Positions 2,147 through 29,388 of a stretch of DNA of 64,000 nt are shown here, one piece after another. Position 1 is the first letter of the stretch. Each line of letters begins with the position of its first letter. The position numbers and the translations under genes were made by a program. Source of the stretch: Geodermatophilus sp. TF02-6 (GTDB taxonomy: Bacteria; Actinomycetota; Actinomycetes; Mycobacteriales; Geodermatophilaceae); NCBI RefSeq assembly GCF_003319115.1, contig NZ_QOHF01000001.1:248001-312000 (forward strand), given 5' to 3'. Below the pieces are notes generated by a model. The model did no database searches and had not been told where the DNA came from. It saw only the letters and a list, made by a program, of their open reading frames with translations.

Positions 2147-2960
2147 TCAGCGGCCCGCAGGGGCGAGCGACACGGGCAGGCGCCGGGCTCCCCAGCGGCC
2201 GACCGGCCCGTCGAAGCGGCCGGGGAGGGCGGTGCCGCAGCCCGTGCAGCGGCCGTCGTCGGTGAGCCGGTAGCCGTTGATGACGTACCAGTCCCGTTCC
2301 ACCACGGCCGCCCCGCAGCCGGGGCAGGGGGTGCGCCCGCCATCGGCGTCGTGGACGTTGCCGGTGTAGACGAACCGCAGGCCGGCGTGCAGGGCGATCC
2401 GGCGGGCACGGGTCAGGGTCGCCGGCGGGGTGGGCGGGACGTCGCGCATCTTGTGGTCGGGGTGGAACGCGGTGAAGTGCAGCGGGACGTCGGGGCCGAG
2501 GTGCTCGGCGATCCAGGTGCACTCGGCGTCGATCTCGGCGTCGGAGTCGTTGTGCCCCGGGATGAGCAGCGTGGTGACCTCGAACCAGACGTCGGTCTCG
2601 TGCCGCAGGTGCACCAGGGTGTCGAGCACCGGCTGCAGACGGGCCGCGGAGACGCGGTGGTAGAACCGGTCGGTGAACGCCTTGAGGTCGACGTTCGCGG
2701 CGTCGACGTGGGAGTACAGCTCCCGGCGGGCGGGATCGGTCACGTAGCCGGCGGTGACCAGGACGGCTGCGATGCCCCGGGCCCGGCAGGCGTCGGCGAC
2801 GTCCACCGCGTACTCGAGGAAGATCGTCGGGTCGTTGTAGGTCATCGCGACGCTGCGGCAGCCGAGCCGCTCGGCGGCCTCGGCGATGCCGTCGGGGGTG
2901 GCCGCGGCGGAGAGCCGGTCGATCTCCCGTGACGTCGAGATGTCCCAGTTCTGGCAGAAC
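2147..2960 (-). pseudogene. amrS: 3' fragment of amrS (radical SAM enzyme), cut by element insertion
   Basis: From the att repeat the frame reads FCQNWDISTS and runs through MTYNDPTIF, a typical AmmeMemoRadiSam radical-SAM body, to a C-terminal zinc-ribbon-like part with CPGC and CTGC pairs and the stop at 2147. It lacks the start and the first two cluster cysteines, which lie in the other half at 11947-12291. Joining 12291-11984 to 2942-2147 gives 1104 nt, exactly 368 codons, so the halves come from one 367-aa gene. An in-frame TAG lies just inside the element (about 3003-3005 on the opposite strand) and no start codon is created at the junction, so this half should not give an active enzyme. 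Confidence 0.9.
2943..2960. repeat. attL, 18-bp direct repeat at left end of the element
   Basis: TCCCAGTTCTGGCAGAAC occurs here and again, identically, at 11984-12001. The flanking bases differ (G before this copy, T before the other). On the minus strand it encodes the FCQNW part of the radical-SAM motif of amrS. An integrase gene begins close by and the chromosomal gene is split exactly at the repeat, as expected for site-specific recombination by a tyrosine recombinase. Confidence 0.9.
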
Positions 2961-2964
2961 AGGT

Positions 2965-2990
2965 AAACGGTCCGCCTAGGCGGACCGTTT
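2965..2990. terminator. Perfect 26-bp palindrome beside attL, probable bidirectional terminator
   Basis: Arms AAACGGTCCGCCT and AGGCGGACCGTTT are exact complements with no loop bases; real RNA would leave a small loop around CTAG. On the plus strand it runs into five T residues (2988-2992), on the minus strand into three. It lies 40 bases past the integrase stop and 4 bases inside attL, so it would stop element transcripts before they read into the amrS fragment, and could also insulate the element from outside. Confidence 0.7.
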
Positions 2991-3007
2991 TTGCTGCTCA
3001 GTGGCTA

Positions 3008-3059
3008 GGGCACCGCCCCGCGCCCGACCGCTAGGGCACAGCCGGGGCACGAAGGGCAC
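3008..3059. repeat. Four GGGCAC repeats, candidate integrase arm sites (left)
   Basis: GGGCAC occurs at 3008-3013, 3034-3039, 3045-3050 and 3054-3059, the first two inside CTAGGGCAC. Two more copies lie near the right end at 11854-11859 and 11865-11870. Clusters of short direct repeats flanking the core are where tyrosine integrases bind with their N-terminal arm domain. The left copies partly overlap the 3' end of the integrase gene. The function is inferred from position and repetition only. Confidence 0.4.
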
Positions 3060-4158
3060 CGGCAGCGTCGGACCACACCCGCTCCAGCGCCTCCAGTGTC
3101 CGGGCCTTCCCATCCGGCATCGGATGGCCGTAGACCTCCTGAACCAACCGGGTGTTGGCGTGGCCGAGGTGTTCGGCGACGTCCACGTCGGGCCGCCCCT
3201 CGGCCAGCAGCACCGACCCCGCGTGGTGACGGAACATGTGCGAGGTGAGGTCCGGCACCCCGACCGCCGTGCACGCCCGGTGGAGCATCTGGTTGTAGTG
3301 GTGCCTGGTGACCGGTCGGCCGGTGGCCCGCCCGTTGCCGAAGATCGCCGCGTCGCGGTCGACGGGGAAGGCCGCCAGGTGCGCGGCCAGCACGTCGCGC
3401 ACCGGCTCCGGCAGCGGCACGGTGCGGCGCGACGTGTCGGACTTGCACCAGTCGACCCGCTGCCGGGTCAGGTGGTCGACCTGCGCGGCGACCGTGACCG
3501 TCGGGGGCCTGCTCAGGAAGTCGACGTCACGGGGCCGCAGCGCCAGCAGCTCGCCGACCCGCAGGCCGGTCGCCGCCTGGACGATCACCAGCGCCCGGTA
3601 GCGCGGCGGCATCGCCTCGGCAATCGCCCGCACCTGCGCGACGGTCGGCGGGGTGACCTTCTCCCGGCGCGGCGCCCTCGGCCGCTTGACCCGGTCGGCC
3701 GGGTTGTAGGGGATGCGGCCGTCGTCCACGGCCGCCGCGAGCAGCTGGCGCAGGCGACCCACGACCTTGGCCAGCGTGGACGGCGCCAGCACCTTGGACC
3801 GGTCGGCCACCCACGCCTGGATCTCCGACGGCCGCAGGTCGACCAGCCGCCGGTCCCCCAGCCGGGTGCCGTCGACGTGCGTTGCGATGACGCTCTCGAT
3901 GCGGGCCCGCGTGGCGTCGCGGACGTCGTACCTGGTGGCCAGCCAGTCCCACGCCCATTCGCTGACCGTGGTGCGGTCGGACCGGTCGACGTAGGTGCCC
4001 CGTCGCACGTCGACCTCTTGGCTCTCGGCGTAGTGCCGGGCCTTGCGTTCGCTGGTGAACGGCTTGCCGTCCGGGCCGCGTGACGCCTTCCGCTGCCGCC
4101 CGTCGCCGTCGCGCCAGCGCGCGAAGATGACCCCCCCGCGCTTCTCGATCGACGCCAC
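3031..4158 (-). CDS. int: Tyrosine-type phage integrase
   Basis: The 375-residue protein has an N-terminal arm-binding region rich in basic residues (1-60), a SAM-like core-binding domain (about 65-170, with LRPSEIQAW) and a catalytic domain (about 180-365). The catalytic set is visible: R in TGLRVGELL, K in WCKSDTSRRT, HxxR in HMFRH, H in HLGHANT and the nucleophile Y in QEVYGH. It should cut and rejoin the 18-bp att core. Translation starts at a GTG one base after the repressor stop (TGACGTG), so it is coupled to the repressor, an arrangement that would let lysogenic transcription also make integrase. The next feature downstream is the palindromic terminator, then attL. Confidence 0.95.
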   Translation of the reverse strand: MASIEKRGGVIFARWRDGDGRQRKASRGPDGKPFTSERKARHYAESQEVDVRRGTYVDRSDRTTVSEWAWDWLATRYDVRDATRARIESVIATHVDGTRLGDRRLVDLRPSEIQAWVADRSKVLAPSTLAKVVGRLRQLLAAAVDDGRIPYNPADRVKRPRAPRREKVTPPTVAQVRAIAEAMPPRYRALVIVQAATGLRVGELLALRPRDVDFLSRPPTVTVAAQVDHLTRQRVDWCKSDTSRRTVPLPEPVRDVLAAHLAAFPVDRDAAIFGNGRATGRPVTRHHYNQMLHRACTAVGVPDLTSHMFRHHAGSVLLAEGRPDVDVAEHLGHANTRLVQEVYGHPMPDGKARTLEALERVWSDAAGALRAPAVP

Positions 4159-4159
4159 G

Positions 4160-4549
4160 TCACACCTCCTCGTCGGGCAGCAGCGCCGCCGCGACCCGCT
4201 CGATCCGCTCTCGCAGCCGGGCGACCTCGGCCGCCGCCTGCTCCGGGGTGAGCACCGGCGGGTCCTGGTGCGGGTCGCCGATGCGCACGTGCACCGCGCC
4301 GGGCTCGATGACCAGCAGCGCGGCCACCTCGATGTCGAGTGCCTGCGCCACGACCGCGGCCTCCGTGGCCTTCAGTGTCCGCTGGGCCTGCTCGGTCTTG
4401 GTGACCGTGTTCGGGCGCCAGCCGAACCCGGCCGCCCGCATCGCCTCGGCCAGCCGTTCCTGTGACCAACCGGCCCCGGTGCGCAGCTCCCTCAGCCGGC
4501 GGCCGAGCTGCGCTTCCCGGTCCTCTGCCTGCGTATCGACACCTGTCAT
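4160..4549 (-). CDS. XRE-family repressor-like regulator
   Basis: A 129-residue protein with an N-terminal Cro/C1-type helix-turn-helix at about residues 15-70 (LRELRTGAGWSQERLAEAMR, then NTVTKTEQ as the recognition part) and a short C-terminal helix (LTPEQAAAEVARLRERIERV) that could form a coiled coil for dimerisation. It is transcribed divergently from the excisionase and coupled to the integrase, the usual place for an immunity repressor. A strong promoter (TTGACA, 18 bases, TACCGT) ends 7 bases before the ATG, implying a leaderless mRNA, and a perfect palindrome covers the start codon, suggesting autoregulation. Confidence 0.85.
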   Translation of the reverse strand: MTGVDTQAEDREAQLGRRLRELRTGAGWSQERLAEAMRAAGFGWRPNTVTKTEQAQRTLKATEAAVVAQALDIEVAALLVIEPGAVHVRIGDPHQDPPVLTPEQAAAEVARLRERIERVAAALLPDEEV

Positions 4550-4585
4550 GACAGAAACGGTAGTACCGAAAGATGACTACTGTCA
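4543..4585 (-). promoter_or_regulatory. Repressor promoter with overlapping palindromic operators
   Basis: Read on the minus strand, TTGACA (4585-4580) and TACCGT (4562-4557) are separated by 17-18 bases, and the repressor ATG follows 7 bases later. CTGTCATGACAG at 4543-4554 is a perfect 12-bp palindrome over the start codon, CGGTAGTACCG at 4558-4568 is an 11-bp inverted repeat over the -10, and CTGTCA recurs at 4579-4584. This spacing fits cooperative repressor binding that controls both the repressor and the divergent excisionase. Binding itself is inferred. Confidence 0.6.
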
Positions 4586-4634
4586 ACGTGTGCCGCCCCG
4601 CGAGGACGGACAGACAGCACCGGAAGGACTCACG

Positions 4635-4838
4635 TTGACGAAGACCAAGACCCCCAGCGACCAGTGGCTGACCCTGGAGGCGATCGCCGACGAGCTGGGC
4701 GTCCCGCTCGGCACCGTCTACAACTGGCGGACCAAGGGCACCGGCCCGGTCGGCTACACCGTCGGCAAGCACGTACGGGTCCGCCGCAGCGACCTCGACG
4801 CGTGGCTGGCGCAGCGCCGGGACGGCGGTGCCGCATGA
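4635..4838 (+). CDS. xis: Excisionase-like helix-turn-helix protein
   Basis: I chose the TTG at 4635 because GGAAGGA lies 6-7 bases upstream; earlier in-frame ATGs lie in the repressor operator. The 67-residue product is a single MerR/excisionase-type DNA-binding domain: LTLEAIADELGVPLGTVYNW, then a wing (YTVGKHVRVRR) and SDLDAWLAQR, the standard end of such domains. Its role would be to bend DNA at the att sites and favour excision, or to control lytic genes. It heads the rightward gene train, its stop overlapping the next start (ATGA). Divergent transcription from the repressor suggests repression in the integrated state. Confidence 0.78.
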   Translation: MTKTKTPSDQWLTLEAIADELGVPLGTVYNWRTKGTGPVGYTVGKHVRVRRSDLDAWLAQRRDGGAA

Positions 4839-4909
4839 GCCCCGCCCCGGTCGACCGCGAGGCGTGGGCCGCCGCCGTCCGCGCCACCCGGGAGGGCCCG
4901 GCGGCATGA
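4835..4909 (+). CDS. 24-residue peptide ORF in the early gene train
   Basis: ATG at 4835 overlaps the excisionase stop (ATGA), and its own TGA overlaps the ATG of the next gene in the same way. The short product (MSPAPVDREAWAAAVRATRE and four more residues) has a helical pattern. It resembles no family I know. The double stop-start overlap argues that ribosomes pass through it, so it may be a true small protein or only a translational bridge. No function can be assigned. Confidence 0.45.
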   Translation: MSPAPVDREAWAAAVRATREGPAA

Positions 4910-5271
4910 CCCCCGACGAGACGGCCCCCGCCGAGCGGCAACTCAGCGGGGGCCCGGGAATCCGCGTGGGTGGGGGTTCCACCGACGAGCGTAGCGCCGC
5001 CCGCCGACAACCGAGGACCGTCACGCCCGCCGACTGGTCCGCCGCCGTCGCGCGGGTCCCCCTCAACCTCGCCGGCCGCACCGTCGCCGGTCAGTTGCTC
5101 GACCGCGCCGGCCGAAGCGGTCGGGTGCGGGCCACCCCCGGCGAGCTGGCCGCGTGCACTTGCCTGCCGGTGACCGGCATCGCCGATGCTCTCGCCGACC
5201 TGGCGTCGCGCGGCTTGATCGCGCAGGAGGGTCGGACGCTCGTCCTCACCCGGCCCGGGTCGGCGCGGTGA
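4906..5271 (+). CDS. Small element protein with winged-helix-like C-terminus
   Basis: A 121-residue protein whose first 45 residues are disordered (Gly, Ser, Arg rich). The rest contains TPADWSAAVARVPLNLAGRT followed by a probable winged helix: VRATPGELAACTCLPVTGIA, ADALADLASRGLI and a beta hairpin EGRTLVLTRPG. The start overlaps the previous stop (ATGA); the next gene starts 3 bases after its stop. A DNA-binding role in replication or regulation of the element is plausible from the fold pattern, but I cannot name the family. Confidence 0.6.
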   Translation: MTPDETAPAERQLSGGPGIRVGGGSTDERSAARRQPRTVTPADWSAAVARVPLNLAGRTVAGQLLDRAGRSGRVRATPGELAACTCLPVTGIADALADLASRGLIAQEGRTLVLTRPGSAR

Positions 5272-5274
5272 CCG

Positions 5275-6183
5275 GTGAGCGCCGAGCCCCAGACCCTCGA
5301 CGGCCCGTACCTCGACCTCATTCGCACCGGCGCCCCCAGCCTCGCCGACGCCTACGGAGCCGAGTACGACCGCCGCGTCTGGCACGCGCTCAACCGCACC
5401 GCCCTCGCCGCGATGCAACACGGCCTCGACTTCGCCCGCTGGACCTACCTCCTCGACGAGTCGATCTCCCACCTCGGCCACCAGGCCCGCCGAGCCGGCG
5501 GCCGCAAGGAACGCACGACCAGCAGCTACCGCAAGCTGCTCATCAAGGTGTGGGAGAACGCCGAGGAGTACGTCAAGGCGCGCCCCCGGCCCACGGCTGA
5601 GCAGGTCGCCGCCGTCATCGCCGAGGCCCGCAGCATCGCCGCCGACCCGTACCGGCTCCCCAACCCGAACGACCGCGCCGTGCTGACCGCCGCCTGCGAC
5701 CTTGCCGACAAGCACGGCAGCGTCCGCCCGGCCCTACCACTGCCCGAGCTGATGACCCGAACCGGACTCACCCGCAAGGCCGTCCGCTGCGCCCTCGCCC
5801 GGCTCGCAGCCGCCGGCGTGATGACCAGAGCCCGCCGCGGCGACGTACGGAAGCGGCTGGCCGCCCTGTACGACCTCCTGCCACCCAACCCGGCCAAGGG
5901 CACATACACCCCCGAAGACAGGACTACGTGCCCCTCCCGCATAGGTCTATGTGCCCCGGCCGCCGAACGCATAGGTCTATGTGCCCCTGAGCCCGACCCC
6001 ACACCCGAGGAAGGACACCCCGTGCCCGCCAACCCCGAACCCCAGACCTCCGACGCGCACGCGGTCGGCGAGGTGAATCGCTGGGACGACCAGCTGTGCG
6101 CCGACCCGGGGCACTACGCCCCCGGGGCACTGCACTGCGGCGACTGCTTCGACTGCCTCGCCGAGCGCGAGGCCGCCCGATGA
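5275..6183 (+). CDS. 302-aa winged-helix protein, possible replication or regulatory protein
   Basis: This is the largest early protein of the element. The N-terminal half (1-120) is alpha-helical (YDRRVWHALNRTALAAMQHG, SISHLGHQARRAGGRKERTT); residues about 140-205 look like a winged helix (LPELMTRTGLTRKAVRCALA, RLAAAGVMTRARRGD). A disordered segment then holds two copies of RIGLCAP, and the C-terminus has a Cys cluster (LCADPGHY, LHCGDCFDCLAERE) that could bind zinc. Position and size suggest a replication initiator or activator, but no HUH or primase motif is visible, so this is a guess. GTG start; the stop overlaps the next ATG. Confidence 0.6.
   Translation: MSAEPQTLDGPYLDLIRTGAPSLADAYGAEYDRRVWHALNRTALAAMQHGLDFARWTYLLDESISHLGHQARRAGGRKERTTSSYRKLLIKVWENAEEYVKARPRPTAEQVAAVIAEARSIAADPYRLPNPNDRAVLTAACDLADKHGSVRPALPLPELMTRTGLTRKAVRCALARLAAAGVMTRARRGDVRKRLAALYDLLPPNPAKGTYTPEDRTTCPSRIGLCAPAAERIGLCAPEPDPTPEEGHPVPANPEPQTSDAHAVGEVNRWDDQLCADPGHYAPGALHCGDCFDCLAEREAAR
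5920..5987. repeat. Iteron-like repeats within the 302-aa gene
   Basis: CGCATAGGTCTATGTGCCCC occurs exactly at 5938-5957 and 5968-5987, 30 bases apart. A degenerate third copy, AGGACTACGTGCCCC, lies at 5920-5934 (13 of 15 matches). Each perfect copy contains the inverted repeat CATAG-GT-CTATG. The 30-base period is close to three helical turns. The repeats encode the RIGLCAP motif, but the identity at third codon positions and the dyad symmetry suggest a protein-binding site such as an origin or operator. Confidence 0.5.
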
Positions 6184-6479
6184 TCACGACCGCTCTGCCG
6201 TTGGCGCCCCCCGCCCGCTGGAGGGACGCGCTCAAGGCGTCCGGCCTGCCACCAACCGCGATCTTGGTCGGGCACCGGCTCACCGACCGCGGCGCCGACG
6301 ACGCGACCGCGGTGCTCATGCCCGCCCTCTGGGAGCTGGCCGACGCCTGCCAGGTCCCGCTCCCGGTCGTCCGCCGCTGCCTCACCGTGTTGACCGCGGC
6401 CGGGTGGATCGCCCCCGCGACCGACGACGACGGCCGCCGCCTGGCCGTCCTCACCGACCCGACAGGAGACCCCGCATGA
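6180..6479 (+). CDS. 99-aa winged-helix-like element protein
   Basis: ATG at 6180 overlaps the previous stop (ATGA). The product begins MITTALPLAPPARWRDALKA, and its second half reads as a winged helix: ALWELADACQVPLPVVRRCL, TVLTAAGWI and the hairpin DDDGRRLAVLT. It resembles the winged-helix parts of the two preceding proteins, so the early region may encode several related DNA-binding proteins made from one transcript. Its stop again overlaps the next ATG. No named family is recognised. Confidence 0.6.
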   Translation: MITTALPLAPPARWRDALKASGLPPTAILVGHRLTDRGADDATAVLMPALWELADACQVPLPVVRRCLTVLTAAGWIAPATDDDGRRLAVLTDPTGDPA

Positions 6480-6778
6480 CCGCATTGCGCGCCCCCAGCG
6501 CTCCGTCCGTCACCGCCCCACGCGCCGCGGGGGTCGAGACATCCGGCGACAGCAGGCCGGCGATCGAACGCCCCGAGACGACCCGCCAGGCCGCGAGATG
6601 GGATGCGGTCGCCTCCGACTACCGCCGGGCCGGGTGGTGCCCACGGTGCGCCGCACAGGCCGCCTGGGGCCACCAGTGCGGGTTCGCCCGGGTGCACCCC
6701 CCCTGCCAACGGTGCCGGGGCCGGGCCCTGCCCGCCCGGCACGACGTCCTCCACGCCCGCCGCTGGTCCCGGTCATGA
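6476..6778 (+). CDS. 100-aa protein with zinc-ribbon-like cysteines
   Basis: The start is coupled to the previous gene by ATGA. The first 45 residues are low-complexity; the core RWDAVASDYRRAGWCPRC is followed by a Cys/His set (WCPRCAAQ, WGHQCGFA, HPPCQRCRG) that could hold one or two zinc ions. Such small zinc-ribbon proteins are common in actinobacterial integrative elements, usually without known role. It ends in a basic ARRWSRS tail. Function unknown; a nucleic-acid or protein adaptor is the likeliest guess. Confidence 0.58.
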   Translation: MTALRAPSAPSVTAPRAAGVETSGDSRPAIERPETTRQAARWDAVASDYRRAGWCPRCAAQAAWGHQCGFARVHPPCQRCRGRALPARHDVLHARRWSRS

Positions 6779-7014
6779 CCGCCGACCTGGACGCCGCCGC
6801 CGCCGAGCTGGGCGGCGCCACCGCCGAGTTGCGCGCCGCCCTGGTCGCCTGCGCCGCGGTGTGCCGGGCCCGCGGCCGTGCCGGCGACGCCCTCGCCGCC
6901 GCCGCCGCCGACCTCGCCGACTCCGCGTTCGACCGGGCGACGGCCGCCCGCACCCTCGCCGCCACCGCGCTCGCCGCCGCCGGCAACCCGGAACCGTCAC
7001 AGGGCCCGCTATGA
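6775..7014 (+). CDS. 79-aa Ala-rich helical protein
   Basis: Coupled by ATGA to the zinc-ribbon gene. The whole product is a helical Ala/Leu/Arg-rich chain (DLDAAAAELGGATAELRAAL and similar), the sort of sequence that forms a coiled coil or helical bundle. It has no catalytic motif. It could be a scaffold-like or regulatory helper for the capsid that follows, but this is only a guess from its place between the early genes and the capsid gene. Confidence 0.5.
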   Translation: MTADLDAAAAELGGATAELRAALVACAAVCRARGRAGDALAAAAADLADSAFDRATAARTLAATALAAAGNPEPSQGPL

Positions 7015-7079
7015 TGGGGGGCAGCACCGAGCGAGCACCGCCCGCCGATGACGCGCAGGAGCGCCGAGGCCGGCGGTGA
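7011..7079 (+). CDS. 22-residue ORF at the end of the early train
   Basis: Two consecutive ATG codons overlap the previous stop (ATGATG), opening a 22-codon frame that ends at 7079 in a charged tail (AQERRGRR). The overlap pattern continues that of the preceding genes, which is the only support. The 137 bases to the capsid start hold no other gene that I can see. It may be spurious. Confidence 0.28.
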   Translation: MMGGSTERAPPADDAQERRGRR

Positions 7080-7216
7080 AGCAAGGGAAGAGAGCCGTAC
7101 CGCGGACGTAAGACGGCCACCGCCGTCGAGACGGCCCCCGGCAGCCGGCCGACCAGCCGTGAGCGCATCCCGCGCCCGGCCTACCCCGCCCTGCCTCTCG
7201 AACGGACGACCCTCCC

Positions 7217-8314
7217 ATGCGCGCTGTGCTGCGCGAGGCCCTCGACCGGGCCGACACCATCATCACCGCCGCCCGCAAGGCCGGCCGCCCCCTCACCGAC
7301 GACGAACGCGAGTACGTCAAGCGGTGCATCGACCAGGCCGACGCCGACCGCGACGCCGCCGCGTTCCGCGACGAGATCGACCGGATGCGCCGCGGCGACC
7401 CGGTCGACGGCTCCCCGCCCGGATGGCAGGGCCCCGGCCTCGGCCAGAAACTCATCCAGGCCGGGTTCCACGCCAAGAGCCGCCCGTCGGTGGAGCTGTC
7501 CGCCTACGCCGCCCTCGGCGCGCACGCCAAGACCGCGACCCTCCCGCCCACGCCGACGATCAACCCCACCGACCCGGCCTGGGTGCCCATCGGCCGCGAC
7601 AGCCGGTTTCTGTGGCCGGCGCTGCCCCGCGCCGACGCCGGCACCAACACCGCCGTAGCCGACTTCCGGCAGACCGCCCGCGCCGTCACCGGCGCCGTCG
7701 AACGCGCCATCGACGCCACCACCACGAAGGCCGAGCTCGACGTCACGCTGACCGCGGTGAGCGAGCCGATGAAGCAGCTCGCCGTGACCATCCGCGACAT
7801 CCCCAACGCGATCCTGGAGGCGGAGTCGCTGCTGCGGCAGTTCCTCAACAGTGAGGGCAGGTTCGTCGTGGAACGGGAGCTGGACGCGCACGTCGAACGG
7901 CAGATCGTCGCCGCCGCGCCACCGTTCGGCAACACCGGCACCGGGCTGGTTGCGCAGGTCCGCAACGGTGTCACCGCGATGCGCGCCGAGGGCGCCAACC
8001 CCTCTGTCTTGGTCGTGAACGCCGCCGACGCCGCCGCCCTGGACCTGACCACCGACGCCGGCGGCTACGTTTTTCCCCTGTCGCAGACCGGCGGCACCGG
8101 CCTGTGGGGCCTGCGGGTCATCGAGAGGCCCGGCACCACCCCGCCGTACCTGATCGACCCGGCCATGCTCGGCATGCTGTACCTCGGCGGGATGCGGTTC
8201 GACGCCGACCCCTACACCGGGTTCACCCGCAACCTGACCACCCTGCGGGTCGAGGTGAACGCGTTGTTCCACGTCCGCGACGCCCGCGGCGCCCGCCGCA
8301 TCGCGGCCACCTGA
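7217..8314 (+). CDS. HK97-fold phage major capsid protein
   Basis: The 365-residue protein opens with a short helical region (1-65: LREALDRADTIITAARKAGR) in place of a long delta domain. It then shows HK97-type features: the N-arm, the long spine-helix stretch (AVTGAVERAIDATTTKAELD, TIRDIPNAILEAESLLRQFL), an A-domain with NPSVLVVNAADAAALDL and GGYVFPLSQTGGT, and a C-terminal strand series ending NLTTLRVEVNALFHVRDA, typical of phage capsid C-termini. It would form the shell. No protease, portal or large terminase gene accompanies it, unlike in complete phages. Start: first ATG of the frame, with no clear Shine-Dalgarno. Confidence 0.8.
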   Translation: MRAVLREALDRADTIITAARKAGRPLTDDEREYVKRCIDQADADRDAAAFRDEIDRMRRGDPVDGSPPGWQGPGLGQKLIQAGFHAKSRPSVELSAYAALGAHAKTATLPPTPTINPTDPAWVPIGRDSRFLWPALPRADAGTNTAVADFRQTARAVTGAVERAIDATTTKAELDVTLTAVSEPMKQLAVTIRDIPNAILEAESLLRQFLNSEGRFVVERELDAHVERQIVAAAPPFGNTGTGLVAQVRNGVTAMRAEGANPSVLVVNAADAAALDLTTDAGGYVFPLSQTGGTGLWGLRVIERPGTTPPYLIDPAMLGMLYLGGMRFDADPYTGFTRNLTTLRVEVNALFHVRDARGARRIAAT

Positions 8315-8547
8315 TGGCCGGCACCGGCAAGCCGCGGGCCGCCGCCCGCCGCGCACCCCAGCCCGACCAGGAGACCCGCGTCGCCGAGGCGGCCCGCGCC
8401 CGCGGCCTGCGCCTGGACCGGGTGAGCGAGGGCCGCTACCGCCTGGTCGACTCCGACACCCACACGCACATCGCCGACGACTGGCCCACCGGGCGGGGCC
8501 TGCCCCTCGACCGGCTGGAGCAGGCCCTCGCAGACTGGGCGCCGTAG
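8314..8547 (+). CDS. 77-aa protein coupled to the capsid gene
   Basis: Its ATG overlaps the capsid stop (TGATG). The first 25 residues are basic and disordered (GKPRAAARRAPQ); the rest has a compact pattern (ETRVAEAARARGLRLDRVSE, YRLVDSDTHTHIADDWPTGR) resembling small phage-associated proteins of unknown role. It is the last gene before the strong hairpin at 8551-8588 and could be a head-decoration or completion protein; there is no direct evidence. Confidence 0.6.
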   Translation: MAGTGKPRAAARRAPQPDQETRVAEAARARGLRLDRVSEGRYRLVDSDTHTHIADDWPTGRGLPLDRLEQALADWAP

Positions 8548-8550
8548 GCC

Positions 8551-8588
8551 CCCGCCGGCCGGTGCCCTCCTTGACGCCGGCCGGCGGG
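8551..8588 (+). terminator. Strong hairpin after the capsid operon
   Basis: Arms CCCGCCGGCCGG (8551-8562) and CCGGCCGGCGGG (8577-8588) are perfect 12-bp complements around a 14-base loop, starting 3 bases after the last stop. No T-run follows, as is common for actinobacterial terminators. A second hairpin (CCTGCCCGCC with GGCGGGCAGG) follows within about 50 bases. Confidence 0.6.
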
Positions 8589-9674
8589 ACCCTGCCCGCC
8601 CCCGCTTCCTGGCAGTTGCCGGAGGCGGGCAGGACCCCACCCCCCACCCGTCCGGTTCTGTGCGGTTCCTGCGGGCGGGGGGTGGGACCCCGGACCCCCC
8701 GAACACACACCCCCCCACCCCCCTACGTCACGTGACGCAACCCCGGGCTGGGGAAGAGGCCACCACCCCGGGGGCAGCAGCCCACCCCCGCCCCGCACAG
8801 CCCCCGCCCGGGCCACCCCCCCGGCGAGGACCGGCCCCCCGGGGCACCCCACCCCCGGCGGCACCCCACCCCCGGCGGCACCCCGGGCGGCAGCACCCGA
8901 CCAGCGACCGGACACGACACCCTGACCGACGAGCCGCGTCCGGCGCCACGGACCAGCAGCACCGTCGACCAGCAGCGCGACAGCGGCGACAGGACAGCGA
9001 CACAGCGGCCAGAGCGGGCACGACGACGACGGCCCCGACGACAAGCGAGCACGAGCGACGGCGAACACGACAGCCGCGGGCAGCGACGGCACGACGAAGA
9101 CGATGGCGACCAGCGGCACGACGGCGAGACAGTCGCGTGCACGACAGCGACGACGACGGGCGGCGCCGGTGACGAGCACGGCGACCAGCGGCACGAGCAG
9201 CGCACCAACAACGAGCAGCACGAGCGGCGGCGCGGCGCCGACGCTGACGACCACCACGACGACGCTGGCCGTCGTCGCTCCGCACAGCCGACGCCGAACC
9301 CGGTCGACCGACCCGCACCCGACGCCGGACCGACCCGCACCCGCACCCGAGCCCGACCCCCGAGGCCGGACTCCGCCCGCGGCCACCGACAACCCGCCCA
9401 GCGGCCCCACCAGCGCCGAACCCGACCCGCCGCACACCCCGGCAACCTCGGCCGCGGCAACCGCCCCCCACCCGCCGACCTCGGCACACCCTCCCGCCGC
9501 TGGTAACACCGACCAGCCCACACCCACACCCACCGCCACCCACCCCCAGGGGAGGGGGCTTCCCCAACCCCACCCCAAGATCATCCAGCCGGTCCGCCGG
9601 TCAGCGGAACTCTCTCCCCGGCCCCCAGAGAAAACCGGCCCCGCCGAGGGGCCCCGACGACAGGAGCAGCACCC
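8589..9674. other. 1.1-kb T-poor stretch without a convincing gene
   Basis: No frame here has normal protein character; all translations are Pro/Thr/Arg or Gly/Val/Cys low-complexity. The plus strand is strikingly poor in T: by hand count 7 T in 8881-9240, and none from 8966 to 9103 or 9171 to 9244, while A stays around a quarter. Ends are C-rich (8690-8900, 9300-9560). A perfect palindrome CGTCACGTGACG lies at 8726-8737. Such strand asymmetry suggests an origin, a structured or R-loop-forming RNA, a packaging region, or a recently expanded simple sequence. Confidence 0.55.
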
Positions 9675-10067
9675 GTGAACGAACGCGCCCCGGCCGGGCT
9701 CAAGACCTCCGGCCGCAAGTTGTGGACCGAGTTGACCAGCACGTTCGACCTGGATGCGCACCGGCTGGTGCTGCTGCGGGAGGCGTGCCGGACCTTGGAC
9801 GCGTGTGATGTCCTGCACGGGCTGGTGGAGGGCGCGGAGGGGGTGGAGAAGCGCCGAATCCTGGCCGAACTACGCGGTCAGCGGGCCCTGTTCGGGCGTC
9901 TGGTGGACCAGGTGATGCCGGAGGACCGGCCGGCGCGGCGGAAGCCGGACCCGGTGGACGGGAAGCTGGCGGAGCTGCGCGCGTTGCACGGGCGGCCCGG
10001 TGGTCGGGTGGATGCTCGGCAGTCCCCCCACCCCGCGTTCCCGGGAGGTGCCCCCGATGAGCGGTGA
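9675..10067 (+). CDS. Phage small terminase-like protein (P27 type)
   Basis: The 130-residue protein starts at GTG with AGGAGC upstream. Its body matches the pattern of P27-family small terminases: GLKTSGRKLWTELTSTFDLD, AHRLVLLREACRTLDACDVL, then a helix with conserved charged residues and a disordered C-terminus. Small terminases recognise the DNA to be packaged and hand it to a large terminase, which is missing here. If real, this would direct a helper phage's packaging machine to the element, the usual trick of satellites. Family assignment is by pattern only. Confidence 0.6.
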   Translation: MNERAPAGLKTSGRKLWTELTSTFDLDAHRLVLLREACRTLDACDVLHGLVEGAEGVEKRRILAELRGQRALFGRLVDQVMPEDRPARRKPDPVDGKLAELRALHGRPGGRVDARQSPHPAFPGGAPDER

Positions 10068-10125
10068 GGACGGGCAGGACCCCGGCGGGCCGCACCGGCG
10101 AGGGCCTGCGAGTCCGGCAGACTGA
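10057..10125 (+). CDS. 22-residue ORF overlapping the terminase gene end
   Basis: ATG at 10057 has GGGAGG 8 bases upstream, lies in another frame over the last codons of the preceding gene and stops at 10125. The product is a Gly/Pro/Arg-rich peptide. The ribosome-binding site is the main support. It leads closely into the next GTG at 10130. It may only serve to couple translation. Confidence 0.3.
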   Translation: MSGEDGQDPGGPHRRGPASPAD

Positions 10126-10129
10126 CCCC

Positions 10130-10315
10130 GTGACCATCAGGTGGTTCACCGACGCCGACCGGCGCGACATGCGCGACGCGGCCGAGGAACGCGCGGTGAC
10201 CGACCAACTGGAGGCCGAGCACGCGACGACCGGCTGCATCCCGATGACCGCCGAACAGGCCCGGCTGATCGACACCCTCGATCTGCGGCCGTGGGACAGG
10301 CTCGGCGACCGCTGA
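10130..10315 (+). CDS. 61-aa acidic element protein
   Basis: Starts with GTG 4 bases after the preceding tiny ORF. The product (MTIRWFTDADRRDMRDAAEE, then helical segments with EQARLIDTLDLRPWDRLGDR at the end) is acidic and probably helical, with no known motif. It is the last rightward gene before a strong hairpin. Cargo or accessory function cannot be told from sequence. Confidence 0.5.
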   Translation: MTIRWFTDADRRDMRDAAEERAVTDQLEAEHATTGCIPMTAEQARLIDTLDLRPWDRLGDR

Positions 10316-10346
10316 CCTGCGGCCGAGAGCCTCACCGTGCAGCACG

Positions 10347-10379
10347 GGGCCCCGCCGTCGTGTGGTGACGGCGGGGCCC
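10347..10379. terminator. Bidirectional terminator hairpin
   Basis: GGGCCCCGCCGTC (10347-10359) and GACGGCGGGGCCC (10367-10379) are 13-bp perfect complements with a 7-base loop. It lies between the end of the rightward genes (10315) and the end of the leftward operon (10437), exactly where convergent transcription must stop. Confidence 0.75.
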
Positions 10380-10436
10380 GGTGCGGGGGGGTGCGGGGGT
10401 CCCGGCCGGCCGGGGGACGGGACCGGCCGGGACGCC

Positions 10437-10790
10437 TCAACCGTCGGCGCGCCGACGGCTGAACGCGGCCCGCGCCGCCGCGCAGAACGGCAGCGCCCAC
10501 CGCCGCCGGCGCTGCGCATCCGCCGCGGTCCCGGGGTCGCCCACCAATCCGCCGGCCCGGGCGGCAGGCAGCAGCAGCCCGTCGGCGCGGGCGGCGGCCA
10601 GCAGCAGCCCGCCGGCCAGCCGCCGCGCCGTCGCCGCGGTCATCGGGTCCTCGGGCACGACGGCGACGACCAGCGGTGGGCCGTCGTCGCCCGCGGCGGG
10701 CCGGACGACGCCGATCTCGGCCGGCTCGCCGTGGGGCAGCGGGACCAGTCCGGTCGTCTCGACCTGGCCGAATTCGCCGGTGGTGCTCAC
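10437..10790 (-). CDS. 117-aa Ala/Leu-rich element protein
   Basis: The start is the GTG at 10790, which overlaps the stop of the upstream gene (GTGA). The first half looks like a folded beta-type domain (ETTGLVPLPHGEPAEIGVV, DDGPPLVVAVVPEDPMT); the second half contains a duplicated helical unit (AARADGLLLPAARAGGLVGD) made by a direct repeat in the DNA. The tail is basic. Last gene of the five-gene leftward operon, before the shared hairpin. No family recognised. Confidence 0.5.
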   Translation of the reverse strand: MSTTGEFGQVETTGLVPLPHGEPAEIGVVRPAAGDDGPPLVVAVVPEDPMTAATARRLAGGLLLAAARADGLLLPAARAGGLVGDPGTAADAQRRRRWALPFCAAARAAFSRRRADG

Positions 10791-11074
10791 TGGTGGACCT
10801 CCCGCCAGTAGGCGTACACGGCTTCTGCCTCCGCGAGATCCTGAGGCAGCTCCCCGGCCTTGACCAGGATCGCCGTCAGGTCCGGCTCGCCGCGTTCGAC
10901 GCACTCGGCGTAGACCGCGCCGAGCACGCGGGTCGCATACCAGCGAGACTGCGCGAACCGGGACAGCTCCCCGTACGGGCACGTCTGGTCGGACGCGGCC
11001 GACACGATCAGCCGGGCCCGCGCGTACTGCGCGAGCTTGGCGTAGTCGCGGGGCGGGTCGGTGGTCACGGTCAC
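10787..11074 (-). CDS. 95-aa helical element protein
   Basis: Starts at GTG 11074 overlapping the stop of the preceding 58-aa gene; a second GTG two codons in, with GAGGAGG at better spacing, may be used instead. The product is all helical (DYAKLAQYARARLIVSAASD, LSRFAQSRWYATRVLGAVYA, LPQDLAEAEAVYAYWREVHQ) and looks like a well-folded small domain. Its good codon pattern makes it the most convincing gene of the operon. No known family; phage-defence or regulatory cargo is possible but unsupported. Confidence 0.62.
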   Translation of the reverse strand: MTVTTDPPRDYAKLAQYARARLIVSAASDQTCPYGELSRFAQSRWYATRVLGAVYAECVERGEPDLTAILVKAGELPQDLAEAEAVYAYWREVHQ

Positions 11075-11247
11075 GGCCTCCTCGGGGTGTTGGTGACGGT
11101 CACCGTGCCGTCGTCGTTGACCCGCAGGCGCCGCCGGTCGCCGCCAGCCAGCGCCAGGGCCTCACGAACGACCGCGCCGGGCACGGTGACCACCGGGGCC
11201 GGTGGCGGGCACGTGGGGGCGTCCACGAGGCGCCTGCGGCGGCTCAC
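11071..11247 (-). CDS. 58-aa basic element protein
   Basis: A short gene beginning at GTG 11247, overlapping the stop of its upstream neighbour, with its own stop overlapping the next GTG. The product starts with a basic patch (MSRRRRLVDAPT) and has a swapped-hairpin-like core: VVTVPGAVVREALALAGGDR, then RRLRVNDDGTVTVTN. That pattern is reminiscent of AbrB-type or small DNA-binding antitoxin domains, without being diagnostic. The double stop-start overlap makes it likely that it is translated. Confidence 0.5.
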   Translation of the reverse strand: MSRRRRLVDAPTCPPPAPVVTVPGAVVREALALAGGDRRRLRVNDDGTVTVTNTPRRP

Positions 11248-11423
11248 CGGCCGCCCGCCCGCTCGGCGGCGCGGGTGCGCTCGACATCGACCCGGCGGGC
11301 GATGACGTCGTACACGGGCCTCGGCAGGACGACCAGGGTGCGCGCGTCGGCGCCGTCCAAGACGTGGCCGTCGACCACGTCGCCGAGCAGCGCCAGCAGG
11401 TCGGCCGCGTCAGGGGCGGTCAC
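11244..11423 (-). CDS. 59-aa element protein
   Basis: The GTG at 11423 overlaps the upstream gene's stop (GTGA), a better start than the longer in-frame option at 11453. The product (MTAPDAADLLALLGDVVDGH, TLVVLPRPVYDVIARRVDVE) mixes a short helix with a strand-helix unit and ends in a charged helix. No family is recognised. Part of the five-gene chain in which every junction is a four-base overlap. Confidence 0.48.
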   Translation of the reverse strand: MTAPDAADLLALLGDVVDGHVLDGADARTLVVLPRPVYDVIARRVDVERTRAAERAGGR

Positions 11424-11656
11424 CGCTCGGCCGCCCGGATCGCGTCGAGCCACAGGTCAGCCCCCCGGCGGGTCAGCGCGCCCAGGATCACCCCGGCCGC
11501 CTCCCGGACCTCGGGGGCGTCGTCGCGCTCGGCGAGGTGTTCGAGCAAGTCCACCAGATCGACGGCGGCCGGGTCGACGTAGAACACCGGCGGGTCGCCG
11601 GGCGTGTTCGGCGTGGAGTCATGACCGGCGCGGGACCCGTAGTCAATGATCGGCAA
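11420..11656 (-). CDS. 78-aa first gene of the leftward element operon
   Basis: I place the start at the TTG at 11656, because GAGGAGG lies 8 bases upstream and the conserved-looking part (MPIIDYGSRAGHD, VFYVDPAAVDLVDLLEHLAE, REAAGVILGALTRRGADLWL) begins there; a longer frame to 11794 would add Arg/Pro-rich filler. The C-terminal half is helical. Unknown family. Transcription probably starts from the 11657-11983 region, which has two TTGACGGAGCCC copies on this strand. Confidence 0.48.
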   Translation of the reverse strand: MPIIDYGSRAGHDSTPNTPGDPPVFYVDPAAVDLVDLLEHLAERDDAPEVREAAGVILGALTRRGADLWLDAIRAAER

Positions 11657-11983
11657 TGGGTCCACCTCCTCTGCTGAGGTGCGACCAAGTCGCCGGGGGT
11701 CGGGTGGCCGCCCGCCCCCGGCGGCGCCTCGGGTGAGACGCGGCCGTGCAGGAACAGTGAGCCGCCCGCCGGGCTCCGTCAAGAGCCGGCTCACCGGCCG
11801 GGCCGCGTGGTGACCGGAGGCCCCCGGTCACCACGCGCCGGGGGCTCCGTCAAGGGCACATGTGGGGCACACACACCCGGAGAAACGCCGGGAAACGACG
11901 GGTGACGTTGGTAAGTGTTGGGAGACGAAATCCGCAGCTCAGAACGCTAGTCGGAGCGTTCACGCAGGTCACGGACCCCCCGT
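11657..11983. other. Right arm of the element: promoter-like repeats and hairpin, no gene
   Basis: On the minus strand TTGACGGAGCCC occurs twice (around 11842-11853 and 11771-11782). The second is followed 17 bases later by CACTGT, a candidate promoter for the leftward operon. CGCGTGGTGACCGG (11804-11817) and its complement at 11824-11837 form a strong 14-bp hairpin between the two copies. GGGCAC repeats at 11854-11859 and 11865-11870 match those near attL and may be integrase arm sites. No coding frame with protein character is seen. Confidence 0.45.
11804..11837. terminator. 14-bp perfect stem hairpin in the right arm
   Basis: Two 14-base arms (CGCGTGGTGACCGG and its complement) flank a 6-base loop. 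It lies between the two TTGACGGAGCCC copies and inside the right end, so it could stop transcripts coming from the interrupted amrS N-terminal half (which reads into the element from the right) or act as a regulatory structure. Confidence 0.45.
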
Positions 11984-12291
11984 TCCCAGTTCTGGCAGAA
12001 CCGGCAGGCCAGGTTGCAGCCGGCGGTGCCGAAGGACAGCACCGCGCTGCCCGGCAGGAAGTGGTTGAGCGGCTTCTTCTCGATCGGGTCCACGCAGAAG
12101 CCGCTCGACCGGCCGTAGGAGGTGAGCACCACCTGGTCGTCCACCCGGCCGCGGACGAAGCACAGGCCGCGCTGCCCCTCGTGCAGCCGGCACTCCCGCG
12201 GGCAGACGTCGCACTGCACGCGACCGTCGTCGAGCCGGTGCCAGAAGCGACCCGGGACCGTGTACCGGTCGTCGAGGCTGATCTCGGTCAT
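11947..12291 (-). pseudogene. amrS: 5' fragment of amrS with element-encoded tail
   Basis: ATG at 12291 begins MTEISLDDRYTVPGRFWHRL, followed by CDVCPRECRLHEGQRGLC and the radical-SAM cluster motif CNLACRFCQNW, all characteristic of the AmmeMemoRadiSam enzyme. After the att core the frame enters the element, adds a dozen foreign residues (ERGVRDLRERSD) and stops at 11947, giving 114 residues instead of 367. All three cluster cysteines are kept but the barrel is lost, so activity is very unlikely while the element is integrated. The native promoter lies in 12292-12375, shared with the divergent STAS gene. Excision would restore the gene exactly. Confidence 0.92.
11984..12001. repeat. attR, 18-bp direct repeat at right end of the element
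   Basis: Identical to attL (2943-2960). It lies within the amrS coding sequence, over the third cluster cysteine and QNW. Beyond it the chromosome continues with the N-terminal part of amrS on the minus strand. Confidence 0.9.
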
Positions 12292-28341: not shown

Positions 28342-29313
28342 GTGAGGGTGCTGGTCACCGGCGCCAGCGGGATGCTCGGCCGGGCCACGGCCCGTGCGCT
28401 GCTGGCCCGGGGCGACGAGGTGACGGTGCTGCAGCGCCGTCCGTCGGGGCTGCCGTGCCGCGAGGTCCTCGGCGACGTCGCCGACGCGGGCGTCGTGGCA
28501 CGGGCGGCGCAGGGTCGCGACGCCGTCGTGCACCTGGCCGCGAAGGTCGACGTCACCGGCCCCTGGGCCGAGTACGCCCGGGCGAACGTGCAGGGCACCC
28601 GCACGGTCGTCGCCGCCTGCCGGGCCGCGGACGTCAGCCGGCTGGTACACGTCTCCTCGCCGTCCGTGGCGCACGCCGGGGCGGCGCTGGTGGGCGCCGG
28701 CGCCGAGCCCGCCGACCCGGCGCGGGCCCGCGGGCACTACTCCCGCTCCAAGGCCGTGGCCGAGCTCGACGCGCTGACTGCGGACTCGGAGTCGCTGGCC
28801 GTGCTGGCCGTCCGCCCGCACCTGGTGTGGGGGCCCGGCGATCCCCAGCTGGTCGGCCGGATCGTCGAGCGCGCCCGCGCCGGCCGGCTGCCGCTGGTCG
28901 GGTCCGGCGCGGCGCTGGTGGACACGACCTACGTCGACAACGCCGCCGCCGCGCTGCTCGCCGCGGCCGACGCGTGCGGGCCGGTGCACGGCGAGGCGCT
29001 CGTGGTGTCCAACGGCGAGCCGCGCCCGGTCGGCGAGGTGGTCGCCCGGCTGTGCCGCGCGGCCGGCGTCCCCGGGCCCCGCCGCCGGGTGCCGTTCGGG
29101 GTGGCCTGGCTGGCCGGTGGGGTCGCCGAGGGCGTCTGGACGGCGACCGGGCGGCGCTCCACCCCGCCGCTCACCCGCTTCCTCGCCGAGCAGCTGGCCA
29201 CCGCCCACTGGTTCGACCAGACGCGGACGCGGGCCGCCCTGCGCTGGCGGCCGCACGTGGGCCTGGACGAGGGCTTCGCGCGGTTGGGGGCCTGGTACGC
29301 CTCCGGCGGGTGA
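28342..29313 (+). CDS. oleD: OleD, 2-alkyl-3-ketoalkanoate reductase
   Basis: 323-residue extended SDR of the 3-beta-hydroxysteroid dehydrogenase type: LVTGASGMLGRATARALL for NADP, HLAAKVDVTGPWAEY, and catalytic YSRSK. It reduces the OleA product before OleC acts. GTG at 28342, 13 bases after oleBC, with no strong ribosome-binding site of its own. The last eight residues (AWYASGG region) and the stop are part of the first unit of a 26-bp tandem repeat that continues for three more copies; because the stop lies in copy one, copy number changes would not alter the protein. Confidence 0.9.
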   Translation: MRVLVTGASGMLGRATARALLARGDEVTVLQRRPSGLPCREVLGDVADAGVVARAAQGRDAVVHLAAKVDVTGPWAEYARANVQGTRTVVAACRAADVSRLVHVSSPSVAHAGAALVGAGAEPADPARARGHYSRSKAVAELDALTADSESLAVLAVRPHLVWGPGDPQLVGRIVERARAGRLPLVGSGAALVDTTYVDNAAAALLAAADACGPVHGEALVVSNGEPRPVGEVVARLCRAAGVPGPRRRVPFGVAWLAGGVAEGVWTATGRRSTPPLTRFLAEQLATAHWFDQTRTRAALRWRPHVGLDEGFARLGAWYASGG

Positions 29314-29388
29314 GGGCCTGGTACGCCTCCGGCGGGTGAGGGCCTGGTACGCCTCCGGCGGGTGAGGGCCTGGTACGCCTCCGGCGGG
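29288..29388 (+). repeat. 26-bp tandem repeat, 3.9 copies, at the 3' end of oleD
   Basis: Units at 29288-29313, 29314-29339, 29340-29365 and 29366-29388 (partial) are identical; each begins GGGCCTGGTACGCC and ends GGCGGGTGA except the last, which ends GGCGGGGA. The first unit is the end of oleD including its TGA. Units are adjacent with no spacers, so this is a minisatellite, not CRISPR. Because 26 is not a multiple of 3, successive copies shift frame, yet each presents the same AWYASGG-stop in its own frame. Confidence 0.95.

What the first reader, a model, noticed from the sequence alone, without database searches (positions are those of the whole stretch)
2943..12001. Capsid-encoding mini-element integrated in amrS
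A 9.06-kb unit between identical 18-bp repeats carries integrase, repressor, excisionase, many small coupled genes, an HK97-type capsid and a small-terminase-like gene, but no portal, large terminase, protease or tail. This is the composition of phiRv1/phiRv2-like remnants or capsid-encoding satellites. If intact and mobile it would be a satellite that builds its own shell and borrows a helper's tail and packaging motor. Except for the integrase, repressor, excisionase and capsid, its genes match no family I recognise.
Basis: partly seen in the sequence, partly recalled or inferred. Interest (0 to 1): 0.85.

Follow-up and report, generated by a model that had tools for sequence, protein, structure and literature searches.

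The report
Phage satellite with its own shell
A 9-kb piece of mobile DNA inserted in a bacterial gene appears to be a phage parasite that brings its own virus-shell protein and packaging label but must borrow the motor, portal and tail from another phage.

Summary
A 9,041-bp unit between identical 18-bp repeats (2943-2960, 11984-12001) splits amrS inside its radical-SAM motif; in the 9 other amrS-bearing genomes of 108 searched the gene runs through an identical site. Genes: tyrosine integrase, divergent repressor and excisionase, lambda-O-like initiator with 20-bp iterons inside its own gene, HK97-type capsid, small terminase (phrog_1496). No portal, large terminase, protease or tail gene was found in it, and no portal of two tested families in the genome. 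It is not a lone wreck: capsid relatives sit in elements elsewhere in other Geodermatophilaceae, and small-terminase relatives lie in 13 of 104 family genomes, self included. Of ten such loci opened, three also carry a capsid and two a tape measure; none matched TerL or portal queries from three phages. The highest-scoring phage match of its TerS is in 11-kb Mycolicibacterium records without annotated TerL or portal. Best reading: a satellite that supplies packaging specificity and its own small shell and borrows motor, portal, protease and tail. It fits mycobacterial 'candidate PICIs', not strict PICIs or cf-PICIs. New variant of a known kind; mobility untested.

The parts
2943..2960 (.). attL, 18-bp core TCCCAGTTCTGGCAGAAC
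   Evidence: exact repeat; identical in 9 of 9 uninterrupted amrS genes
2965..2994 (.). terminator-like hairpin with T run beside attL
   Evidence: fold z -5.1
3031..4158 (-). tyrosine integrase, 375 aa, catalytic R, HxxR, H, Y motifs present
   Evidence: PF00589, phrog_1, motifs (motif pattern recalled)
4160..4549 (-). HTH repressor, 129 aa, no peptidase domain matched
   Evidence: PF13560
4543..4585 (.). candidate operator region: palindrome CTGTCATGACAG and further CTGTC half sites in the divergent control region
   Evidence: function inferred
4635..4838 (+). excisionase-type HTH_17 protein
   Evidence: PF12728, phrog_66
4835..4909 (+). 24-aa coupled ORF
   Evidence: 4-bp overlaps on both sides
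4906..5271 (+). small wHTH-like protein, 121 aa
   Evidence: sub-threshold PF13545, PF12802
5275..6183 (+). lambda-O-like replication initiator, 302 aa
   Evidence: phrog_391 and phrog_270; homologue in L006 E 5e-42
5899..5987 (.). candidate in-gene origin: iterons TAYGTGCCC, two of them in 20-bp repeats 30 bp apart (5938, 5968)
   Evidence: 0 of 300 codon shuffles reach a 20-bp repeat
6180..6479 (+). wHTH protein, 99 aa
   Evidence: sub-threshold HTH_IclR; homologue in L048 E 3.5e-10
6476..6778 (+). cysteine-rich zinc-ribbon-like protein, 100 aa
   Evidence: CxxC pairs by eye; no family below E 0.01; not called by the codon model
6775..7014 (+). 79-aa protein linked to the capsid (scaffold or size factor?)
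   Evidence: homologues in 4 of 104 family genomes, self included, each upstream of a capsid; none found in L009, L011, L041, L043, L048
7217..8314 (+). HK97-type major capsid protein, 365 aa
   Evidence: PF05065, phrog_10; hhalign 97.3% to the L008 capsid, which matches TIGR01554
8314..8547 (+). 77-aa ORF coupled to capsid
   Evidence: 1-bp overlap; no family
8548..9674 (.). T-poor tract without coding signature, upstream of terS; candidate packaging region
   Evidence: function is speculation
9675..10067 (+). terminase small subunit, 130 aa
   Evidence: phrog_1496 E 6.6e-13; tblastn to annotated actinophage TerS
10130..10315 (+). 61-aa ORF
   Evidence: called as 10064-10315; no family
10437..11656 (-). 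five overlapping small genes (10437-10790, 10787-11074, 11071-11247, 11244-11453, 11420-11656), probable accessory operon
   Evidence: overlaps; only weak matches, none above a Pfam or NCBIfam cut-off and none in PADLOC; 11244 gene has a homologue in L048 (E 7e-5)
11984..12001 (.). attR, 18-bp core
   Evidence: exact repeat
11984..12291 (-). 5' half of amrS
   Evidence: TIGR04337 positions 2-90
2147..2960 (-). 3' half of amrS
   Evidence: TIGR04337 positions 85-348

Best explanation
The unit is an integrated phage satellite. Shown: att sites, gene content, no match to portal, TerL, protease or tail genes, and recurrence of this selection in related elements. Inferred: in the resident state the repressor silences the divergent operon; it has no recognised self-cleavage domain, so a helper-phage factor rather than DNA damage probably relieves it. 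Excisionase and integrase release a 9.04-kb circle and restore amrS. The O-like initiator binds iterons inside its own gene and replicates the circle with host enzymes. The element makes its own capsid protein (perhaps with the 79-aa protein as scaffold or size factor), forming a small shell of about 39-43 nm around helper portals, and its TerS directs the helper's large terminase to satellite DNA. Helper tails then finish particles that inject the satellite into new hosts, where the integrase targets the conserved motif of amrS.
For: Empty site in 9 of 9 other amrS genomes. PICI-like order: int and repressor leftward, xis, replication and packaging genes rightward (against passages). TerS and capsid. 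Negative tblastn with TerL and portal queries of three actinophages over 18 loci, while MCP and TerS queries of the same phages hit. No PF04860 or PF05133 portal in the genome; between them these two models recognise 3 of 3 actinophage portals tested. Portal PF04860 occurs in 4 of 104 family genomes, none of them in the list of 13 with TerS, which argues against these TerS genes being parts of full prophages with that portal type. The two M. aichiense 11-kb records examined share the TerS type, an HTH initiator gene with in-gene iterons and a capsid, without annotated TerL or portal.
Against: No direct evidence of excision, replication, particles or a helper. The capsid family is rare (3 of 112 family genomes at E 1e-10, self included; self only of 394 class genomes) and was not found in the phage and IMG/VR scans. 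L006, L007 and L008 have a capsid but no recognised TerS, so the pair is not universal, and the 79-aa gene was not found in L009, L011, L041, L043 and L048. AlphaFold2 of the capsid failed (pLDDT 41.5), NCBIfam has no match to it, hhalign against the A4 capsids gave no useful match, and pN/pS (0.58-0.82, saturated) is not informative. TerL negatives rest on PF03354, which recognised only 1 of 3 known actinophage TerLs, and on three phages' queries, of which only one TerL pair found each other. PF05133 was searched in this genome only, not in the family.
Confidence: 0.74

Rival explanations
1. A decayed prophage that lost portal, terminase and tail by chance and is now immobile.
For: No excision shown; a 1.1-kb stretch without coding signature lies between capsid and terS.
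Against: Genes open and mostly overlapping, exact att sites, integrase motifs present. The same genes are missing in independent elements with other integrases and sites; chance decay would not be expected to repeat the selection.
Confidence: 0.17
2. A mobile island whose HK97-fold protein is a domesticated shell, such as an encapsulin-like compartment or an abortive-infection decoy that poisons helper capsids, rather than a packaging shell.
For: The L008 relative also matches the family 3 encapsulin model (69 bits, below its 180 cut-off). A lone capsid gene could poison helper assembly. L006, L007 and L008 lack a recognised TerS.
Against: The window element also has TerS, an initiator with iterons and an excisionase, as a packaged satellite would; the same L008 protein scores 126 bits with the HK97 capsid model (cut-off 27.5); 11-kb M. 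aichiense records deposited as phages hold a similar combination.
Confidence: 0.07
3. An actinomycete integrative conjugative or plasmid-like element that picked up phage genes.
For: Integrase, excisionase and initiator occur in such elements too (recalled).
Against: No transfer (FtsK/TraB-like) match among the 18 proteins scanned; TerS and capsid are present; no match in a near search of plasmids.
Confidence: 0.02

Closest known systems
Candidate PICIs of mycobacteria, including phiRv1 and phiRv2 (Mycobacterium prophage survey, PMC10654092; passages seen)
   Same: [quoted passage not shown] some with terminase, scaffold or replication genes; tyrosine or serine integrases; induction by phages not shown there.
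   Different: Different host family; target is a protein-coding gene, not a tRNA gene as for their three tyrosine-integrase examples; capsid with no phage relative found by tblastn; no protease found (a phiRv protease is recalled, not checked here).
Mycolicibacterium aichiense 11-kb 'phages' (JSForest2 OR387116.1 and Alyssa1 OR387110.1 examined, 2 of 12 records sharing the capsid)
   Same: TerS homologous to the window's (E 8e-12 and 2e-8; JSForest2 TerS is phrog_1496), HTH initiator with in-gene iterons, capsid, integrase; no annotated TerL or portal.
   Different: Serine integrase, head-tail adaptor, stopper and tape measure genes (and a scaffold in JSForest2) that the window element lacks; capsid not matched to the window's. 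Eight of the 12 records gave no TerS match at E 0.01.
Gram-positive PICIs / SaPIs (PMC6092414 and PMC10690885, passages seen)
   Same: Repressor with int to the left, xis and replication genes to the right; some SaPIs use their own TerS to redirect packaging.
   Different: PICIs lack structural genes and remodel helper capsids; this one encodes a capsid protein.
Capsid-forming PICIs (as described in the introduction of PMC10690885, passages)
   Same: Own capsid protein, tail from helper.
   Different: cf-PICIs also encode portal, protease, connectors, large terminase and HNH; none found here.
MulchRoom and MiniFlayer satellites of Streptomyces phages (PMC10690885, passages)
   Same: Actinobacterial satellites with own capsid.
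   Different: They encode both terminase subunits, portal and scaffold and lack obvious replicases.

Membership tests
[quoted passage not shown]
PICI (PMC6092414) | repressor with int to its left and, divergently, xis and replication genes to its right | tested here: met
   gene order and strands; a second, rightward regulator was not identified apart from xis
PICI (PMC6092414) | absence of phage structural genes | tested here: not met
   capsid gene
PICI (PMC6092414) | helper-dependent induction and high-frequency packaging | not testable with these tools
   needs phage infection
Capsid-forming PICI | complete head and packaging module incl. portal, protease, TerL | tested here: not met
   family scans and tblastn negative
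Intact temperate prophage | TerL, portal and tail genes | tested here: not met
phrog_1496 terminase small subunit | sequence match to the family | tested here: met
   E 6.6e-13 over residues 3-103
HK97-fold major capsid | sequence match to capsid models | tested here: met
   PF05065 above cut-off, phrog_10, hhalign 97.3% to an HK97-model capsid; but no NCBIfam match
HK97-fold major capsid | predicted fold | tested here: inconclusive
   model too poor to search
Encapsulin | match to encapsulin models | tested here: not met
   window capsid: no NCBIfam hit at E 0.1

The most novel reading that the evidence does not exclude
Actinobacteria of the family Geodermatophilaceae carry a common, mostly undescribed class of small (about 9-11 kb) satellites that keep only those virion genes which set packaging specificity and particle dimensions: TerS (specificity), capsid protein with or without a small partner (head size), and in some a tape measure (tail length). 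Motor, portal, protease and tail tube are taken from the helper. The T-poor tract upstream of terS would be the packaging site.
Probability: 0.35. Interest if true: 0.75.

Novelty: new variant of a known kind. Interest (0 to 1): 0.58.

Why it matters
Satellites described in the papers seen either remodel helper capsids or bring a whole head module. An element that brings only the capsid protein and TerS implies that a foreign capsid protein can be assembled on a helper's portal and filled by a helper's motor, a directly testable claim about how interchangeable head parts are. In Geodermatophilaceae TerS genes of this type occur in more genomes than the one portal family searched across the family (13 versus 4 of 104), so such elements may be an important route of phage-borne gene transfer there.

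Tried and rejected
Capsid searches in phages and IMG/VR, and initiator and integrase searches in IMG/VR, found nothing; the initiator found no phage; a near search of plasmids found nothing. AlphaFold2 of the capsid gave pLDDT 41.5, so no fold search was run. No capsid relative was found in solved structures by sequence. hhalign of A3 against the A4 capsids failed, while against the L008 capsid and a phage capsid it succeeded. pN/pS is saturated. Defence-system scan of ten proteins (eight of the window, two of L006): none. Long open frames on both strands of 8436-9818 were considered as genes and rejected: no codon-position signature, no family for the three frames scanned. PF03354 as a TerL test was downgraded because it recognises only 1 of 3 known actinophage TerLs. 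An ORF 9103-9678 overlapping terS is possible but unsupported. No convincing direct repeats that would mark att sites were found for L006 or L008 in the stretches compared.
Full report
What is there. The window lies in a 4.73-Mb, 53-contig genome whose 'same family' relatives G049 and G113 appear to be Blastococcus contigs, so the family is Geodermatophilaceae. The 18-bp repeat TCCCAGTTCTGGCAGAAC is exact at 2943-2960 and 11984-12001, giving a unit of 9,041 bp. Such a repeat alone would not be rare (about 1.5 chance pairs per window). The decisive fact is that the flanks are the two halves of amrS: they match the AmmeMemoRadiSam radical SAM model TIGR04337 at positions 2-90 and 85-348, overlapping by the duplicated FCQNW motif. 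Of 108 family genomes searched, 10 have amrS at E 1e-30, this one included. In the other 9 the reading frame runs through (374 to 1,243 codons open, against 285 here), and the 18 bp are identical in all 9. The integrase therefore aims at a highly conserved stretch of the gene and cuts amrS in two while resident. The neighbouring gene is AmmeMemoRadiSam protein B.

Gene content. Leftward: tyrosine integrase with R, HxxR, H and Y motifs in place, then a 129-aa HTH repressor with no peptidase domain matched. Between repressor and excisionase lies an 85-bp control region; the palindrome CTGTCATGACAG overlaps the repressor start. Rightward: an excisionase-type HTH, a 24-aa ORF, two weakly wHTH-like proteins around the 302-aa initiator (phrog_391 and phrog_270, replication initiation), a cysteine-rich protein, a 79-aa protein, the capsid, a 77-aa ORF, a 1.1-kb T-poor tract, the small terminase and a 61-aa ORF. 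Five overlapping small genes at the right end run the other way and match nothing above a curated cut-off (three of the five were given). Ten of 17 junctions overlap, eight by 4 bp. Gene starts were set by hand from the sequence and agree with a codon-model gene call except at four starts (repressor, 10130, 11071 and 11244 genes); that call also left out the 6476-6778 gene.

Capsid. Pfam PF05065 is above its cut-off and phrog_10 agrees. NCBIfam has no match, AlphaFold2 failed for want of sequences, and hhalign against alignment A4 (three TerS-linked capsids plus L008) found nothing useful. But the capsid of L008 is related to it by BLASTP (E 3e-16) and hhalign (97.3%), and that protein matches the HK97 capsid model TIGR01554 at 126 bits. 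An Arthrobacter phage capsid is also matched by hhalign (87.1% over 101 columns).

Replication. The initiator carries a 20-bp exact repeat, CGCATAGGTCTATGTGCCCC, twice 30 bp apart inside its own gene; 0 of 300 codon shuffles gave as long a repeat. The homologue in L006 (40% identity) has a 13-bp repeat at the same 30-bp spacing, though that alone is not significant (29 of 300). The two M. aichiense records examined have 20- and 22-bp repeats in their HTH gene (0 of 300 each); the JSForest2 one matches the same initiator families. The putative initiator of L007, assigned by eye, has a 14-bp repeat (6 of 300). This looks like the lambda O arrangement, an origin within the initiator gene (recalled), and suggests a self-replicating circle.

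Relatives. The capsid finds 3 of 112 family genomes at E 1e-10, self included, two weaker ones at E 1e-3 (G024 and G020; 4 of 98 genomes with self and G049), one metagenome-assembled genome (L011), and only self of 394 class genomes. L006 (G049, Blastococcus mobilis contig) and L007 (G113) have serine integrases (phmmer to a phage serine integrase) and the capsid but no recognised TerS; L008 (complete genome G024) is similar, its serine integrase assigned by eye. G049 and G024 have an uninterrupted amrS, so their elements sit elsewhere. L009 (G020) has a capsid fused to a protease. The 79-aa gene occurs in 4 of 104 genomes (G000, G024, G049, G113), each time upstream of a capsid related to this one. 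It was not found in L009 or L011, nor in L041, L043 and L048, so it marks one branch of these elements. It is a candidate scaffold or size factor, by position only.

Small terminase. Homologues lie in 13 of 104 family genomes, self included, at 15 places. I opened 10 of the 14 places outside the window. Three have a capsid gene (L041, L043, L048; PF05065), two a tape measure (L045, L047), and five neither in the gene calls of the stretch held (L040, L042, L044, L046, L049; L044 and L049 are short contigs). TerL and portal queries from three actinophages hit none of 18 loci searched (window, 15 bacterial loci, two M. aichiense records), protease queries hit only L009, whereas MCP queries hit L008, L009, L041, L043 and L048 and the TerS query of EmiRose hit six loci. 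In the annotated phages with near capsids or TerS (Madeline, Preamble, EmiRose) TerL, portal and capsid lie together behind a small terminase or, in Preamble, a hypothetical gene in its place, with a protease in Madeline and Preamble. Caution: the three phages' TerL queries found each other only for one pair, so this test misses distant TerLs. A portal search with PF04860 found 4 of 104 family genomes, none in the list of 13 with TerS. PF04860 or PF05133 recognised all 3 phage portals tested, and neither is found in this genome; PF05133 was not searched across the family.

Packaged cousins. The phage match of the TerS with the best E-value is in 11-kb Mycolicibacterium aichiense records with soil as source (4 such records among 14 matched). 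JSForest2 and Alyssa1 carry TerS, adaptor, stopper, serine integrase, HTH initiator, a scaffold (JSForest2) or hypothetical gene (Alyssa1), capsid and tape measure, with no annotated TerL or portal (JSForest2 proteins checked). Twelve records share the capsid at 95% identity or more; I looked at the genes of two, and eight of the twelve showed no TerS match at E 0.01. That records deposited as phages have this gene selection supports packaging, although I did not see how they were isolated beyond the record fields. No held paper contains both the host's name and 'bacteriophage' (broader searches were capped lists).

How it probably works. Integration and gene order are shown. Helper-triggered derepression is inferred from the lack of a recognised self-cleavage domain. 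TerS redirecting the helper's large terminase is inferred by analogy with SaPIs, whose TerS redirects packaging to SaPI pac sites (PMC10690885, passages). A 9.04-kb genome fits a published size model's mean of 8.94 kbp for T about 2.49 (38.8 nm) and lies in the 8.1-17.1 kbp range given for T = 3 (42.8 nm) (PMC7762592, passages). The tract before terS falls to 1.6% T and holds the lowest-T 500-bp window of the terS sense strand in the whole 64-kb window; the lowest-T window lies within 1.5 kb upstream of terS in 4 of 10 loci, this one included (window, L041, L046, L048). L042 was left out because it holds 240 N, and the two M. aichiense records because they have little upstream sequence (P about 0.014 under a uniform-position model, weak and found after the fact).

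Placement. By the mycobacterial definition (integrase plus major capsid gene, PMC10654092, passages) it qualifies as a candidate PICI, the group to which that paper assigns phiRv1 and phiRv2. By the stricter PICI definition (no structural genes, PMC6092414, passages) it does not, and it lacks the full head module of capsid-forming PICIs. So: a new variant of a known kind. Paper searches in which I saw no description of such elements in this family are all hits listed; 10 of 639 listed; none listed holds all three of Geodermatophilaceae, prophage and satellite, and fuller matches rank first; they cover open-licence PubMed Central papers only, and I saw listings and abstract starts. The survey of thousands of satellites (gkad123, PMC10085698) was not held, so its coverage of these elements is unknown to me.

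Noticed in passing
L045:6457-9240, L047:3739-7293, L024:8337-10292, L011:3103-5031: Satellite-like elements with a tape measure gene (927, 1184 and 651 aa by PHROG match; L011 weak) but no tail-tube gene seen in the gene calls; possibly a shortened ruler that makes helper tails shorter.
   Followed up: partly
window 8548-9674; L041, L046, L048 upstream of terS: Strand-asymmetric T-poor tract upstream of terS in 4 of 10 loci; candidate packaging region.
   Followed up: partly
L040:5762-8291: Downstream of a TerS element in a complete genome lie genes that look, by eye, like a restriction endonuclease and a very-short-patch endonuclease: possible defence cargo.
   Followed up: no
L006:1754-11640: The Blastococcus mobilis element appears to interrupt a tadC-like secretion gene (by eye), so several of these elements may split protein-coding genes; its att repeat was not found.
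   Followed up: partly
window 2147-2960 and 11984-12291: amrS is patchy in the family (10 of 108 genomes) and split here while its partner gene amrB matches its model nearly end to end.
   Followed up: no
window 29288-29380: A tandem array with a 26-bp period seen while counting repeated 18-mers.
   Followed up: no
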